A stretch of DNA of 64,000 nt from positions 1,651,252 through 1,715,251 of the forward strand of contig NZ_KI912613.1 in assembly GCF_000519325.1 (NCBI RefSeq), written 5' to 3'. The notes under the pieces are model-generated. The model saw nothing but the letters and a program-made list of their open reading frames with translations. It was not told where the DNA came from and made no database searches. A program made the translations under genes and the position numbers. Positions 6,194 through 61,309 of this stretch are shown piece after piece (position 1 is the first letter of the stretch; each line of letters opens with the position of its first letter). The DNA comes from Patulibacter minatonensis DSM 18081. GTDB lineage: Bacteria; Actinomycetota; Thermoleophilia; Solirubrobacterales; Solirubrobacteraceae.

Positions 6194-7261
6194 GTGAGCC
6201 CCGGCCCCGTTCCCCCGACCGCGCTGGAGCGCCGCACGCTGGCCGCGGCCAAGGGCGGCGACGAGCACGCCTACCAGCGGCTCGTCGCACCGTTCGAGAA
6301 GGAGCTCCACGCGCACTGCTACCGGATGCTCGGCTCGGTCCACGACGCCGACGACGCGCGGCAGGACGCGCTGCTGCGGGCGTGGCGGTCGCTCGGGCGG
6401 TTCGAGGGCCGCAGCTCGCTGAAGTCGTGGCTCTACCGGATCCACACGAACACCTGCCTGGACGTGCTCGCGAAGCGGAAGAAGCACCGCGTGATGCCCG
6501 CCGAGCACGGACCCGCCGGCAGCGCGGTGCCTGGTCCGGGGACGCCGCTGGCCGAGTCGGTCTGGATCGAGCCGTACCCCGACGAGCGCTACGTCGACGA
6601 GGACGCGCTCGCCGGTCCGGACGCGCGGATCGAGCAGCGCGAGGGCGTCGAGCTCGCGTTCGTCGCGGCGCTCCAGCACCTGCCGGCCCGCCAGCGCGCG
6701 GTGCTGATCCAGCGCGAGGTCCTCGGCTTCTCCGCCAAGGAGGTCGCCGCGTCGATCGAGACCACCGTGCCGGCCGTCAACAGCGCGCTGCAGCGGGCCC
6801 GGGCGACGCTCGACGACCTGCTCCCCGAGCGCACGCAGCAGGCGACCCTGCGCTCGCTCGGCGACGACGAGCTCGAGCGGATGGTCGGCGACTACGTGAC
6901 GGCGTGGGAGCAGGGCGACGTCGAGGGGATCGTCCGGATGCTGTCCGAGGATGCGACGCTCGCGATGCCGCCGATGCCCACCTGGTACCGCGGCGAGGAC
7001 GTCGTGATCTTCCTCCGCGACTGGGCGTTCTCCGGTCGCGCGTACGACGCCGAGGGTCGGCGGCGCGTGAAGGTCCTGCCGACCCGCGCCAACGGCCAGC
7101 CCGCGTTCGGGACGTACAGCTGGGCCGTCGACCGCGGCGTCCACCTGCCGACGGTGCTCCAGGTGATCAGCCTCGACGGCGACCGGATCAGCGAGATCAT
7201 GGGCTTCGTCAGCCCCGCGCTGTTCCCGCACTTCGGGCTGCCCGAGTCCCTGCCCGCGTAG
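6194..7261 (+). CDS. ECF-type sigma factor with C-terminal SnoaL domain
   Basis: A 355-residue sigma-70-family regulator. Region 2 is visible as YRMLGSVHDADDARQDALLR and region 4 as LPARQRAVLIQREVLGF followed by the helix-turn-helix AKEVAASIETTVPAVNSA. After residue 215 a SnoaL/NTF2-like domain follows (ELERMVGDYVTAWEQGDV to the end). Fusion of a C-terminal SnoaL-like domain is typical of ECF groups that lack a separate anti-sigma factor, the extension modulating activity; no anti-sigma gene lies next to it here. GTG at 6194 starts just before the first conserved helix. Regulon unknown. Confidence 0.9.
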   Translation: MSPGPVPPTALERRTLAAAKGGDEHAYQRLVAPFEKELHAHCYRMLGSVHDADDARQDALLRAWRSLGRFEGRSSLKSWLYRIHTNTCLDVLAKRKKHRVMPAEHGPAGSAVPGPGTPLAESVWIEPYPDERYVDEDALAGPDARIEQREGVELAFVAALQHLPARQRAVLIQREVLGFSAKEVAASIETTVPAVNSALQRARATLDDLLPERTQQATLRSLGDDELERMVGDYVTAWEQGDVEGIVRMLSEDATLAMPPMPTWYRGEDVVIFLRDWAFSGRAYDAEGRRRVKVLPTRANGQPAFGTYSWAVDRGVHLPTVLQVISLDGDRISEIMGFVSPALFPHFGLPESLPA

Positions 7262-57303: not shown

Positions 57304-57750
57304 TCAGGAGGTCTCGACGATCAGGACCGAGCAGGGCGCGTGGTGACTGATCTTGTCCGGCACGGCGCCGAGCAGGAACCGCTTGCCGCCGGCCATGCCC
57401 TTGTTGCCGATGACGATGAGGTCGACGCCGAGCTCCTCGGCGACGTCCAGGATCCCGCTCGCGGGGTCGCCGTCGCGGGCGGAGGTCCAGACGTCCGAGA
57501 CGCCGACGGTCCTCGCCGACGCCTTCGCGGCCTCGAGCGTCGCGTCGACGTCCTCGCGGTCGTTGACGGCCCACGCGACGTCCGATGGCGCCTGACGCCC
57601 CTCGGCCCGCAGTCGGCTCTTCGAGACCGGGGCGAACGCCGAGACGATGGTCAGGCGGCACTGCATCGCGGCCGCCAGCTCGGCGGCGGCGCGGACCGCC
57701 TGCTCGGCGGTGTCGGAACCATCGGTCCCGACGAGAATCGACCTGTACAC
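57304..57750 (-). CDS. Universal stress protein (UspA family)
   Basis: A 148-residue single Usp domain. The N-terminus YRSILVGTDGSDTAEQAVRA is typical. The ATP-binding loop reads GNKGMAGGKRFLLGAV: the G-x2-G-x9-G pattern is present but the final Ser/Thr is Ala, so nucleotide binding may be altered. GTG 57750 is preceded by a good AAGGAG Shine-Dalgarno sequence. It lies beside the Asp23 stress operon on the same strand but 118 bases downstream of it; co-transcription is possible. Confidence 0.9.
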   Translation of the reverse strand: MYRSILVGTDGSDTAEQAVRAAAELAAAMQCRLTIVSAFAPVSKSRLRAEGRQAPSDVAWAVNDREDVDATLEAAKASARTVGVSDVWTSARDGDPASGILDVAEELGVDLIVIGNKGMAGGKRFLLGAVPDKISHHAPCSVLIVETS

Positions 57751-57868: not shown

Positions 57869-58114
57869 TCACGTCACGCGGCGCCCCGGCGTGCCGCCGC
57901 TCCCGCGGGACGGGTCCGCGAAGCCCGAGCGCGCGGCCTCGGCGCGCTCCTGCAGCTCCGCGAGCGACAGCGTGCCCGTGAGCAGCCCGTGGCCGACGTG
58001 GAACGCGCCCGCGCCGAGCAGGCACAGCAGCGCGATCCAGAGGGACTGGGAGAACGCCACCGCCACGAACGCGAAACCGAGGGCGGTGGGGAGGAACGAA
58101 CGGGTGGGGGTCAT
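57869..58114 (-). CDS. Small two-helix membrane protein of Asp23 operon
   Basis: An 81-residue protein with two hydrophobic helices (LGFAFVAVAFSQSLWIALLC and the following GAGAFHVGHGLLTG) and a charged tail. In Gram-positive Asp23 operons a DUF2273-like small membrane protein occupies this place, but I cannot confirm homology. ATGA overlap with the upstream gene shows coupling. Last gene of the operon. Confidence 0.65.
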   Translation of the reverse strand: MTPTRSFLPTALGFAFVAVAFSQSLWIALLCLLGAGAFHVGHGLLTGTLSLAELQERAEAARSGFADPSRGSGGTPGRRVT

Positions 58115-58722
58115 CGGAGCTGCTCCCGGGCGGAAGGGGCGGTGAAGCGGGTCACGACGACCCGCACGGACTGCTGGGGGACGCCACCCTCGACGAGGGC
58201 GGCGGTGGCGCGGCGCTGGACGCCGCGCAGGAGCTCGGGGAGCACGTCGGCCCCCCGCGCGTGGACGGTGATCGTGAGCTCGTCGTCGCCGAGGCGGGCC
58301 CGGACGGCGTGCAGCCCGGGCTCCCGGCGGGCGGCGACCTCGGCCGCGCGCTCGATCGCGCGCGGACTGACGGTCGTCCGCCCTTCGGGCCGGTCGGCGA
58401 GCACGACGTCGGTGCGGGCCAGGTGCGGGGTCAGGCGCTGCGCCCAGCCGAGCACGAGCAGCGCGACGGCGAGGACGACGGTGCCGACGGCGATCGCCAG
58501 GGCGGTGCCGTCCGGCCAGTTCGCGGGCCCGAACCCGCCGATCTCGCGTTGCACGGTCCGGTAGCCCGTCCATGCGTCGACGTCCCGGGGCGCGGCGCCG
58601 GCCGCGAGGGCCAGGACCACGCCGCCGCCCCAGACCAGGGCGAGGCCGAGCAGCACCATGAGCTTCTGGCCGATCGTGGTGAGGATCCCGTGGGGGAGCC
58701 CCAAGCGCTGGCGCGGCATCAT
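58111..58722 (-). CDS. Membrane-anchor protein of Asp23 operon (AmaP-like)
   Basis: A 203-residue protein with two N-terminal helices (KLMVLLGLALVWGGGVVLAL and ALAIAVGTVVLAVALLVLG) followed by a cytoplasmic Asp23/Gls24-like alpha/beta domain (TTVSPRAIERAAEVAARREP, LHAVRARLGDDELTITVHAR). This matches the layout of AmaP, which tethers Asp23 to the membrane in Gram-positive bacteria. Overlaps genes on both sides by ATGA. Confidence 0.75.
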   Translation of the reverse strand: MMPRQRLGLPHGILTTIGQKLMVLLGLALVWGGGVVLALAAGAAPRDVDAWTGYRTVQREIGGFGPANWPDGTALAIAVGTVVLAVALLVLGWAQRLTPHLARTDVVLADRPEGRTTVSPRAIERAAEVAARREPGLHAVRARLGDDELTITVHARGADVLPELLRGVQRRATAALVEGGVPQQSVRVVVTRFTAPSAREQLR

Positions 58723-59300
58723 TCGGTCCTCGCCCGGCGGCTGCGGCCGACGGCGGTCCGGACCTTCGTGCGCAGCGCGAACGCGCCGGCCAGCGGTCCG
58801 AGGCGCTCGTCGAGCGTGGCGCGGATCGCGTCGGGGTCGGCCCGCGGGGTGCGGGTGACCTGCACGACGAGCCGGCCCCCGGCGCGTCGGCGTCGCGGAC
58901 GCAGGCGGACCTTCGCGCCCGTGGTGCCCAGGACGCGGCCGGTCAGCGACTGCAGCGCACCGCGCAGGGCCCGTCGGCGGATGCGGAGGTCCGCGCCGTC
59001 GGCGAGCGGTACCTCGCGCTCGCGGGACGGGGCGAGCGCCCCGATCAGGAGCACGATGCCGAGCAGCACCGCCCCGATCGCCGCGAGGACCGCGGCGGTG
59101 TCGCCCGACGGCGCGGTGCGGTCCAGGAACGGCCCGACCTCGCGCCAGGCGTCCGTCAGGCCGCTCTGGTCGGCGAGCTTCCGCGACTGGTTCTCGCCGA
59201 CCGTCGCGGCGACCGCGACGAGCACGGCGACGACCGCCAGGACCGGCAGGGCGACGAACGCGACGACGCGCGTCACGGCGCGGGAGACGAAGACGATCAT
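58719..59300 (-). CDS. Membrane protein with Asp23-like/DUF6286-type domain
   Basis: A 193-residue protein: two transmembrane helices (VVAFVALPVLAVVAVLVAVA and AAVLAAIGAVLLGIVLLIGA) and a cytoplasmic basic domain (LRIRRRALRGALQSLTGRVL, then GGRLVVQVTRTPRADPDAIR). It resembles actinobacterial DUF6286 members of alkaline-shock operons. Overlaps neighbours by ATGA on both sides. Confidence 0.72.
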   Translation of the reverse strand: MIVFVSRAVTRVVAFVALPVLAVVAVLVAVAATVGENQSRKLADQSGLTDAWREVGPFLDRTAPSGDTAAVLAAIGAVLLGIVLLIGALAPSREREVPLADGADLRIRRRALRGALQSLTGRVLGTTGAKVRLRPRRRRAGGRLVVQVTRTPRADPDAIRATLDERLGPLAGAFALRTKVRTAVGRSRRARTE

Positions 59301-59674
59301 GCGTCCTCCCCGTCGAGGGCGATGTCGGTGATGACGACGCGGACCCGGCCGAGGGCGTCGGCCAGCCCGTGCTCGCGGGTCTCCCGCTCGACCGCGAGGC
59401 GGACCCCGTCGGCGAGCGCGTGGAGCTCGACCAGGCGCGCCCGGACGTGGACCGTCACGGCGTGCCGGCCGGGCTCGCCGTCGGCGGCGACGAGCACGCC
59501 GGGGATCAGGTCCACGGACGTGCGGGTGCTCAGGCGGTCGTCGCGGCCGGGGTCGAGCGCGGCCACGCCGGTACAGCGCAGCGTGGCGGCGGCGACGACC
59601 CGGGCGAGCCGCACGCGAGGGGTCTCGCGCGTGGCCTCCACGGGCTGTCCGCTGCCGTCGGCGGGGGTCCGCAT
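59297..59674 (-). CDS. Asp23-like protein without membrane segment
   Basis: A 125-residue soluble protein. RLARVVAAATLRCTGVAALD, DLIPGVLVAADGEPGRHAVT and VTVHVRARLVELHALADGVR show the alternating strand-helix pattern of Asp23/Gls24 domains. It lacks the Asp23 C-terminal NINVTD-type motif. Located between Asp23 and the membrane proteins, with an ATGA overlap downstream. Confidence 0.7.
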   Translation of the reverse strand: MRTPADGSGQPVEATRETPRVRLARVVAAATLRCTGVAALDPGRDDRLSTRTSVDLIPGVLVAADGEPGRHAVTVHVRARLVELHALADGVRLAVERETREHGLADALGRVRVVITDIALDGEDA

Positions 59675-59677
59675 CGA

Positions 59678-60142
59678 CTACTGGACCCGGGCGCCCTCGT
59701 CGTTGTCGTCCCCGGCGAAGTGCAGGTCGGTGACGTTGATGTTGACCTCGGTCACCGTCAGCCCGGTGATGCCGGTGATGCGCGACACGACGTTGCGACG
59801 GACGGCCTCGGTGACCTGGGGGATGCTCTCGCCGTACTCGATGACGACCTTCAGGTCGACGGCCGCCTCGCGGGTGCCGACCTCGACCGACACGCCCTGG
59901 GCGAGCTGGTCGCCGAGGCCGACGCGCTGCTGCACGCTGCCGACGACGCGGGCCGCGCCGCCGCCGAGGTCGTGGATGCCGGGGACCTCGCGGGTCGCCA
60001 GGCCGGCGACCTTGGAGACGACGCCGTCGGCGATCGTCGTGTTGCCGGTGTCGGTGACCAGCGGACCGGCGCTCGTGAGGTCGGTGCTCGTGCTCGTGCC
60101 GCCCTCGCTCGCCGTCGTCGTGCGGGTCTTCGTCTCGGCCAT
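59678..60142 (-). CDS. Asp23/Gls24 family envelope stress protein
   Basis: A 154-residue protein with the canonical Asp23 domain: ADGVVSKVAGLATREVPGIH, then KVVIEYGESIPQVTEAVRRN and VTEVNINVTDLHF. Asp23 in staphylococci is a membrane-tethered, alkali-inducible protein involved in envelope homeostasis. Thr/Ser-rich N-terminus. ATG 60142 has an AGGAG Shine-Dalgarno sequence six bases upstream. A hairpin lies in the 94-base gap separating it from the anti-sigma-like gene. Confidence 0.88.
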   Translation of the reverse strand: MAETKTRTTTASEGGTSTSTDLTSAGPLVTDTGNTTIADGVVSKVAGLATREVPGIHDLGGGAARVVGSVQQRVGLGDQLAQGVSVEVGTREAAVDLKVVIEYGESIPQVTEAVRRNVVSRITGITGLTVTEVNINVTDLHFAGDDNDEGARVQ

Positions 60143-60167
60143 CTCGTGCTCCTGTTCGGGGGTATCC

Positions 60168-60186
60168 GCCCCGGGAGGACCGGGGC
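60168..60186. promoter_or_regulatory. Hairpin between anti-sigma and Asp23 genes
   Basis: GCCCCGG-N5-CCGGGGC sits 26-44 bases before the Asp23 start, within the only sizeable gap in the operon. It could partially terminate transcription or stabilise the downstream message. Confidence 0.5.
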
Positions 60187-60236
60187 ACTGCACGTTGGAC
60201 CGGGGACCCGCGGAAAAGTTCCGCACGGATCTCGAT

Positions 60237-60773
60237 TCAGGCGACGACGTCGTCGAACACGACGTCGACCCGGGTGACCGCGACGCCCGCGAGGCGGGCC
60301 ACCCGGTCGGTCACGACGTCGCGGATCTCCGTTGCGACGGGCCCGAGCGCGGGGCCGAGGTCGGCGGTGACGTGGAGGACCAGGTGGACGCCGCCGTCCT
60401 GCTCCTGGGTGGTCCGCACGGACACGAAGCGGACGGGCGGGAGCTCCATCGCGGCGCGGCTGGCGATCTGGGCGACGATGACGTCGGTGACGGTGTCCCG
60501 GCCGTCCCGGCCGGCGGCGACGAGGATCCGGCCGCGCTCGCGCCGGAGCTGCTCGAGCACCCGCGCCGACAGGCCGCGCGGGGGCCGGACGTCCTCGGAC
60601 GCGAGCGCCCGGAGGTCGGCGGCCGAGCCGTCCAGGCGCGCGAGCGCCTCCCGGCAGTACGGGCACTCCGCCTGGTGCGCGGGGTCGGCGGGCGGCGTGC
60701 GGTCGGCGACCTGTGCGACGAGCTCGAGCAGCGGGACGCCGCACTCCAGGCGGGGGTCGTCGGGCGTGCTCAT
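60237..60773 (-). CDS. Zinc-finger anti-sigma fused to Asp23-like domain
   Basis: A 178-residue protein. The N-terminus holds a ZAS-type anti-sigma motif: H33-x3-C37-x2-C40 (AHQAECPYC) with C11 a likely fourth ligand. Residues 75-178 form an Asp23-like domain (TDVIVAQIASRAAMELPPVR, VHLVLHVTADLGPALGPVAT, VTRVDVVFDDVV). No transmembrane helix. It overlaps the upstream sigma factor gene by four bases (ATGA), the standard sigma/anti-sigma arrangement. I read it as a cytoplasmic sensor that links Asp23 status to sigma activity; that function is inference. Confidence 0.78.
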   Translation of the reverse strand: MSTPDDPRLECGVPLLELVAQVADRTPPADPAHQAECPYCREALARLDGSAADLRALASEDVRPPRGLSARVLEQLRRERGRILVAAGRDGRDTVTDVIVAQIASRAAMELPPVRFVSVRTTQEQDGGVHLVLHVTADLGPALGPVATEIRDVVTDRVARLAGVAVTRVDVVFDDVVA

Positions 60774-61309
60774 CGCCAGCCCTCCAGGTCCTGCGCGACC
60801 GCCAGCCGCGCCCGGTGGATCCGCCCCTTGACGGCCGCGAGCGAGACGTCGAGCACCTCGGCGACCTCGTCGTACGAGAGCCCCTCGAACTCGCGCAGCA
60901 CGAGCGCCGCCCGCTGCTCGCCCGGCAGTCGGGTGATCGACGCGGTCAGGGCGCTCATGCGCTCCCGCTCCTCGAGCCGCACGGCCGGGTCGTCGCGCCG
61001 GGTGCCGGTCCGGGACTCCTCGAGCTCGTCTGTGGGGCGGCGTGCGGCGATGAGGTTCAGGCAGCGGTTGGTGGCGATGCGGTACAGCCAGGTCCCGAAC
61101 GCGCTGGACTCGCGGAACCGCGGGAGCGCGCGCCACGCCTGGAGGAACGCGTCCTGGGCGGCGTCCTCCGCATCGATGCGGGTGCCCAGCATACGAAGGG
61201 CCAACCGGAAGATCGGCTGCTCGTGCCGGCGGACGAGCTCGCCGAAGGCGTCCAGGTCGCCGCGCTTCGCGGCCCGGACGAGCAGCGCCTCGGGGACGGC
61301 TGACGTCAT
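60770..61309 (-). CDS. ECF RNA polymerase sigma factor
   Basis: A 179-residue two-domain sigma factor. Region 2: PIFRLALRMLGTRIDAEDAA followed by QDAFLQAWRALPRF; region 4: LPGEQRAALVLREFEGLSYD and the recognition helix DVSLAAVKGRIHRAR. First gene of the Asp23 operon and overlapping its anti-sigma. Probably autoregulates the operon; the upstream gap has GGTTG-N6-CAACC and CACATGTG repeats. ATG 61309. Confidence 0.93.
   Translation of the reverse strand: MTSAVPEALLVRAAKRGDLDAFGELVRRHEQPIFRLALRMLGTRIDAEDAAQDAFLQAWRALPRFRESSAFGTWLYRIATNRCLNLIAARRPTDELEESRTGTRRDDPAVRLEERERMSALTASITRLPGEQRAALVLREFEGLSYDEVAEVLDVSLAAVKGRIHRARLAVAQDLEGWR

What the first reader, a model, noticed from the sequence alone, without database searches (positions are those of the whole stretch)
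57869..61309. Asp23 operon led by a sigma factor and an anti-sigma/Asp23-like fusion
Seven genes on one strand: ECF sigma, a zinc anti-sigma (H33-x3-C37-x2-C40) whose C-terminus is itself Asp23-like, Asp23, a second Asp23-like protein, two membrane proteins with cytoplasmic domains and a small 2-TM protein. Most junctions overlap by ATGA. The fusion suggests the anti-sigma may exchange with Asp23 polymers at the membrane and release sigma when Asp23 is disturbed, a sensing mode I do not know to be described.
Basis: partly seen in the sequence, partly recalled or inferred. Interest (0 to 1): 0.65.

Follow-up and report, generated by a model that had tools for sequence, protein, structure and literature searches.

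The report
Sigma switch wired to Asp23 scaffold
In a soil actinobacterium (a Patulibacter relative) a stress-response gene switch is held off by a protein that carries a copy of the membrane-coat protein Asp23, and the switch appears to turn on the genes for that same coat, which makes a long-puzzling protein's role directly testable.

Summary
Seven genes lie on the minus strand at 57869-61309: an ECF sigma factor, a soluble zinc anti-sigma fused to an Asp23 domain, Asp23, a diverged Asp23-like protein, two AmaP/DUF6286-like membrane proteins and a small hydrophobic protein. The fusion is real: invariant C11/H33/C37/C40, profile match to Asp23 (98.4%, E 6.5e-15), modelled Asp23-like fold, and homologues with clearer Asp23 domains. 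It recurs across Actinomycetota.

New here: an ECF-type promoter (GAACTTT-N14-RTCNAA) lies between the anti-sigma and asp23 genes (60195-60221). In 201 genomes of the order it occurs in all 7 that carry the sigma/anti-sigma pair (12 hits) and at background in the other 194 (15 hits). It also precedes a csbD-family gene in three Patulibacter genomes, including this one. The pair therefore probably controls asp23 and csbD. Asp23 modules without the pair lack the motif.

Prior art: ECF286/ECF292 are already listed as next to Asp23-family proteins predicted to be anti-sigmas, with no experiments. This is probably a member of, or near, that kind. Exchange of the anti-sigma with Asp23 polymers is plausible but not shown.

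The parts
60770..61309 (-). ECF sigma factor, 179 aa
   Evidence: Sigma70_r2 4e-21, r4_2 1.5e-16; groups with other Asp23-locus sigmas apart from 24 ECF paralogues of the same genome
60237..60773 (-). Soluble zinc anti-sigma (C11, H33-x3-C37-x2-C40) fused to a C-terminal Asp23 domain (about residues 87-176)
   Evidence: 4-nt overlap with sigma; invariant ligands; hhalign to Asp23 98.4%, E 6.5e-15; AF2 model with C-terminal H97-109 E114-123 E129-137 H140-162 E166-176; no TM
60195..60221 (-). ECF-type promoter GAACTTT-N14-GTCCAA in front of asp23
   Evidence: exact matches in all 7 genomes of the order found with the sigma/anti-sigma pair; the only exact match in the window
59678..60142 (-). Asp23, 154 aa
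   Evidence: PF03780 5.5e-27
59297..59674 (-). Second, diverged Asp23-like protein, 125 aa, predicted soluble
   Evidence: AF2 pLDDT 86.8, alpha/beta fold; hhalign to fusion Asp23 domain E 8.9e-6; conserved in the related Solirubrobacterales modules
58719..59300 (-). AmaP/DUF6286-like membrane protein, 2 TM plus soluble domain
   Evidence: DUF6286 3.7e-8, AmaP 7.6e-6, both below curated cut-off; TM 1-38, 65-93
58111..58722 (-). Second AmaP-like membrane protein, 2 TM plus soluble domain
   Evidence: AmaP 2.3e-6, below cut-off; TM
57869..58114 (-). Small hydrophobic protein, 81 aa, probable 2 TM
   Evidence: conserved last gene of the asp23 module

Best explanation
This is a self-contained envelope-homeostasis circuit. 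The ECF sigma is held inactive by a soluble class I zinc anti-sigma. Free sigma transcribes the asp23 - asp23-like - amaP-like x2 - small membrane protein module from its own promoter inside the cluster, and at least one csbD-family stress gene elsewhere. The anti-sigma's C-terminal Asp23 domain is the sensing part: it docks on the Asp23/AmaP assembly at the membrane, so the state or amount of that assembly sets how much sigma is free. The likeliest sign is negative feedback: an intact assembly keeps the anti-sigma active, and loss or disturbance of it frees sigma and rebuilds the coat. Shown by computation: the gene pair, the domain fusion, the promoter and its co-occurrence with the pair. 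Inferred: sigma binding, sigma-promoter recognition, Asp23-domain docking, sign of feedback.
For: Overlapping sigma/anti-sigma genes with a canonical Hx3Cx2C motif. The Asp23 domain in the anti-sigma recurs in Thermoleophilia, Streptomyces, Pseudonocardia and other families. Sigma and anti-sigma move as a pair: upstream of asp23 (window, L045-L047), downstream of the module (L068, L069, L162), divergent (Streptomyces-type L053, L074, L167, L168), or about 9 kb away (L043). The five-gene module also occurs without the pair (L155, L156, L158-L161, L163, L165, L166). GAACTTT-N14-RTCNAA lies before asp23 in the pair-bearing Solirubrobacterales loci that contain asp23 and in none of the 9 pair-less control loci. 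Genome-wide: 12 hits in 7 pair-bearing genomes against 15 in 194 others, with the reversed-pattern control at the same background. The motif also sits 64-65 nt before csbD in all 3 pair-bearing Patulibacter genomes and before none of 13 other csbD-like genes checked (CsbD 1.9e-12). In Streptomyces-type loci a second motif, CGTNAC-N15-GTGTC, precedes both sigma and asp23. Two sigma relatives whose zinc anti-sigma lacks the Asp23 domain (L049, L050) have no asp23 nearby and a MscS-type channel gene next door. In S. aureus loss of Asp23 or AmaP strongly induces the cell-wall stress response, and Asp23 polymerises (PMC6954212).
Against: No binding, zinc or expression data exist here. The motif was derived from six of the seven pair-bearing genomes, so only the csbD hits, the hits in G002 and the absence elsewhere are independent. 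GGAAC-like -35 boxes are common to many ECFs. The motif was not seen in L048 (another family). Some relatives keep an Asp23-like partner without the zinc motif (L071, L169-L172), so sigma binding does not always use zinc. Sigma monophyly is only moderately supported (93/81 in one tree, 76/69 in the larger). One genome with a zinc anti-sigma lacking the Asp23 domain (G186) still has an asp23 elsewhere.
Confidence: 0.55

Rival explanations
1. The zinc site is the sensor (RsrA/ChrR-like): oxidation or zinc loss frees sigma, and the Asp23 domain only anchors or stabilises the anti-sigma.
For: Four invariant candidate ligands C11/H33/C37/C40. Soluble class I anti-sigmas are enriched in zinc motifs and often redox-sensing (PMC7406223).
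Against: Zinc motif degenerate in S. longhuiensis (L074) and absent in the Tsukamurella/L169-L172 type, while the Asp23-like part stays. No thiol-redox gene found among the predicted targets. In RsiW the zinc motif is structural (PMC7406223).
Confidence: 0.2
2. The Asp23 domain senses something other than the Asp23 assembly (a lipid, pH or a fatty-acid-synthesis cue), and its likeness to Asp23 is shared ancestry only.
For: The Asp23 domain of the window protein is diverged (sub-threshold in Pfam). B. subtilis YqhY, an Asp23 protein, is tied to acetyl-CoA carboxylase (PMC8144471).
Against: Co-location with and promoter control of asp23 across several families.
Confidence: 0.2
3. Ordinary neighbourhood: sigma and asp23 genes are adjacent by chance and unlinked in function.
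For: Five-gene asp23 modules exist without the sigma.
Against: Fusion, repeated co-location in different arrangements and families, and the promoter co-occurrence.
Confidence: 0.03

Closest known systems
ECF286 / ECF292 sigma groups with soluble Asp23-family putative anti-sigmas (Casas-Pastor classification, as cited in PMC8999054)
   Same: ECF sigma next to a soluble Asp23-family protein; Actinomycetota; Streptomyces and Mycobacteriales loci examined here match that description and their sigmas group with the window sigma
   Different: The review does not mention a zinc anti-sigma domain in these Asp23 proteins, nor targets. Group HMMs were not available, so formal membership is untested. The window pair heads the asp23 cluster on the same strand, whereas the Streptomyces pair is divergent from it.
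ChrR (zinc anti-sigma plus cupin sensor) and RsrA-type soluble zinc anti-sigmas
   Same: N-terminal Hx3Cx2C class I anti-sigma domain, soluble, next to the sigma gene
   Different: The C-terminal domain is Asp23, not cupin; redox sensing not supported by the predicted targets
S. aureus asp23-amaP cluster
   Same: Asp23 with a membrane protein of AmaP type in one operon
   Different: In S. aureus asp23 belongs to the SigB regulon with no fused anti-sigma (own knowledge); here two AmaP-like proteins (both below the AmaP cut-off), an extra Asp23-like protein and a dedicated ECF pair
P. aeruginosa SigX-CfrX-CmpX mechanosensing complex (PMC8999054)
   Same: Relatives L049, L050, L157, L164 pair a similar sigma and a small partner with a MscS-type channel gene, and L157 and L164 sit beside an asp23 module
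   Different: No channel gene in the window cluster

Membership tests
Class I zinc anti-sigma (ZAS) | Hx3Cx2C motif in an N-terminal helical domain | tested here: met
   H33-x3-C37-x2-C40 plus C11 invariant; helices 15-23, 31-36, 38-58, 68-79 in the AF2 model
Class I zinc anti-sigma (ZAS) | Encoded directly after its ECF sigma | tested here: met
   ATGA overlap in the window; adjacent in the relatives listed, except an orphan second copy in L043
Class I zinc anti-sigma (ZAS) | Sequence similarity to a solved anti-sigma | tested here: inconclusive
   Best PDB hit RsiW 5wuq, E 0.018, residues 31-83
Class I zinc anti-sigma (ZAS) | Binds and inhibits sigma; binds zinc | not testable with these tools
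   needs biochemistry
Asp23 family (PF03780), C-terminus of anti-sigma | Pfam score above curated cut-off | tested here: not met
   Window protein 22.8 bits vs 28; relatives above it, e.g. 49.0 (L007) and 40.5 bits (Pseudonocardia)
Asp23 family (PF03780), C-terminus of anti-sigma | Profile-level homology and fold | tested here: met
   hhalign 98.4%, E 6.5e-15; alpha-beta-beta-alpha-beta. No Asp23 sequence relative in the PDB to compare with
ECF286/ECF292 | Sigma next to a soluble Asp23-family protein | tested here: met
ECF286/ECF292 | Match to the group's sigma HMM | not testable with these tools
   models and type sequences not held; the classification paper is not in the library
AmaP (NF033218) | Score above curated cut-off | tested here: not met
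   25.8 and 27.5 bits vs 55; 2 TM plus soluble domain agree
SigX-CfrX-CmpX mechanosensing system | Adjacent MscS-type channel | tested here: not met
   none in the window cluster; present in L049, L050, L157, L164

The most novel reading that the evidence does not exclude
The Asp23 coat under the membrane is itself the signal: the anti-sigma co-assembles with Asp23 through its own Asp23 domain, so sigma activity reports coat integrity and controls coat synthesis, a homeostatic loop in which a scaffold protein measures itself.
Probability: 0.4. Interest if true: 0.75.

Novelty: new member of a known kind. Interest (0 to 1): 0.52.

Why it matters
Asp23 proteins are widespread in Gram-positive bacteria, yet their molecular function is unclear (PMC6954212). 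A regulator that carries an Asp23 domain and appears to control asp23 offers a genetic handle: perturb the coat and read a reporter. It also gives ECF286/292-like sigmas, listed as uncharacterised, a predicted promoter, targets and a testable mechanism.

Tried and rejected
Foldseek against the PDB gave only generic alpha/beta hits (CDF C-terminal domains, adenylate-forming enzymes), uninformative since no Asp23 relative was found in the PDB by sequence. The one-mismatch promoter search was at background and was not used to extend the regulon. The hit at G000:C1:4519820 has no convincing gene downstream and is taken as chance. The universal stress protein gene downstream (57304-57750) was considered as an eighth gene and rejected: it was not found in the related loci. 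A sigma assigned to L054 was a weak, unlinked hit and was dropped. No sigma/anti-sigma or anti-sigma/Asp23 complex could be modelled.

Full report
What is there. The minus strand of 57869-61309 holds, in order of transcription, an ECF sigma (61309-60770), a soluble anti-sigma (60773-60237), Asp23 (60142-59678), a diverged Asp23-like protein (59674-59297), two membrane proteins with a soluble domain (59300-58719, 58722-58111) and a small hydrophobic protein (58114-57869). Sigma and Asp23 are unambiguous in Pfam; the membrane proteins match DUF6286/AmaP below the curated cut-offs. Nearest named relatives are Patulibacter and other Solirubrobacterales. The genome has one Asp23 gene above cut-off and many other ECF paralogues.

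The fusion. Across homologues the N-terminus keeps C11, H33, C37 and C40, the Hx3Cx2C signature used to call zinc class I anti-sigmas (PMC7406223); its profile's best PDB hit is RsiW, weakly (E 0.018). The C-terminus aligns over the Asp23 domain with 98.4% probability (E 6.5e-15), is modelled as alpha-beta-beta-alpha-beta at pLDDT mostly above 80, and an order-level relative (L007) scores 49 bits to PF03780.

Distribution. The five-gene asp23 module occurs without the pair in nine Solirubrobacterales loci. The sigma/anti-sigma pair is an add-on found upstream, downstream, divergent or at a distance, nearly always together. Zinc anti-sigmas with an Asp23-like C-terminus are found in Streptomyces-type, Pseudonocardia and further genomes. 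NCBI names such proteins simply Asp23/Gls24 family. Asp23-locus sigmas group apart from the ECF paralogues of the window genome, with moderate support (93/81; 76/69 in a larger set).

Promoter and targets. Reading upstream regions showed GAACTTT-N14-RTCNAA before asp23 in the pair-bearing loci of the order, and not in nine control loci. In 201 genomes of the order the exact pattern occurs 12 times in the 7 genomes with the pair and 15 times in the other 194; the reversed control pattern is at the same background. Presence 7/7 against 14/194 gives Fisher p 5e-8, but six of the seven genomes supplied the motif, so this figure is optimistic. Independent support: the motif stands 64-65 nt before an orthologous csbD gene in the window genome (C1:4898753-4898908) and two congeners, and before none of 13 other csbD-like genes checked. 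That csbD orthologue is itself seen only in the three pair-bearing Patulibacter genomes. A 69-aa protein with two hydrophobic stretches shares the motif in two genomes. In Streptomyces-type loci another motif, CGTNAC-N15-GTGTC, lies before both sigma and asp23 in four loci and before asp23 in a fifth. No such motif was seen before the window's own sigma gene.

Mechanism. Shown by computation: pair, fusion, promoter and co-occurrence. Inferred: the anti-sigma binds sigma; sigma reads the promoter; the Asp23 domain docks on the Asp23/AmaP assembly. In S. aureus Asp23 binds the membrane through AmaP, polymerises, and loss of either protein induces the cell-wall stress response (PMC6954212), which suits a loop in which a disturbed coat frees sigma. 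The sign cannot be settled from sequence. A further hint at membrane sensing: in L049 and L050 a related sigma has a zinc anti-sigma without the Asp23 domain and a MscS-type channel gene, and in L157 and L164 a related sigma, a small protein and such a channel gene sit beside an asp23 module, recalling SigX-CfrX-CmpX.

Novelty. The review PMC8999054 already lists ECF286 and ECF292 as next to soluble Asp23-family proteins predicted to be anti-sigmas, without experiments; the classification paper was not held. This system most likely belongs there. The zinc domain of these proteins and the predicted targets are, as far as I could read, not described in the papers available here.

Noticed in passing
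L043 5068-6155 and 15201-18179: A Patulibacter MAG has sigma plus fused anti-sigma at one place and, about 9 kb away, a second fused anti-sigma without a sigma leading an asp23 module.
   Followed up: partly
L049 6396-7995, L050 70-2947, L157 4725-6465, L164 4951-7263: Related sigmas followed by a short zinc anti-sigma or an 80-aa protein and a MscS-type channel gene; in L157 and L164 this set sits beside an asp23 module.
   Followed up: partly
L074 2332-3039; L071 3645-4166; L056, L057, L169-L172: Asp23-like anti-sigma candidates with a degenerate or absent zinc motif.
   Followed up: partly
L051, L052, L053, L074, L168: Motif CGTNAC-N15-GTGTC before both sigma and asp23 (asp23 only in L053).
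   Followed up: partly
L071 7312-7521: The Tsukamurella plasmid asp23 cluster ends with an annotated CsbD family gene, echoing the csbD target in Patulibacter.
   Followed up: no
L177, L178: A 69-aa protein with two hydrophobic stretches and no Pfam match follows the promoter motif in two Patulibacter genomes.
   Followed up: no
57304-57750: Universal stress protein gene 118 nt after the cluster on the same strand; not found in related loci.
   Followed up: partly
6233-6811: Another sigma-70 family coding region on the plus strand of the window (sigma paralogue hits).
   Followed up: no
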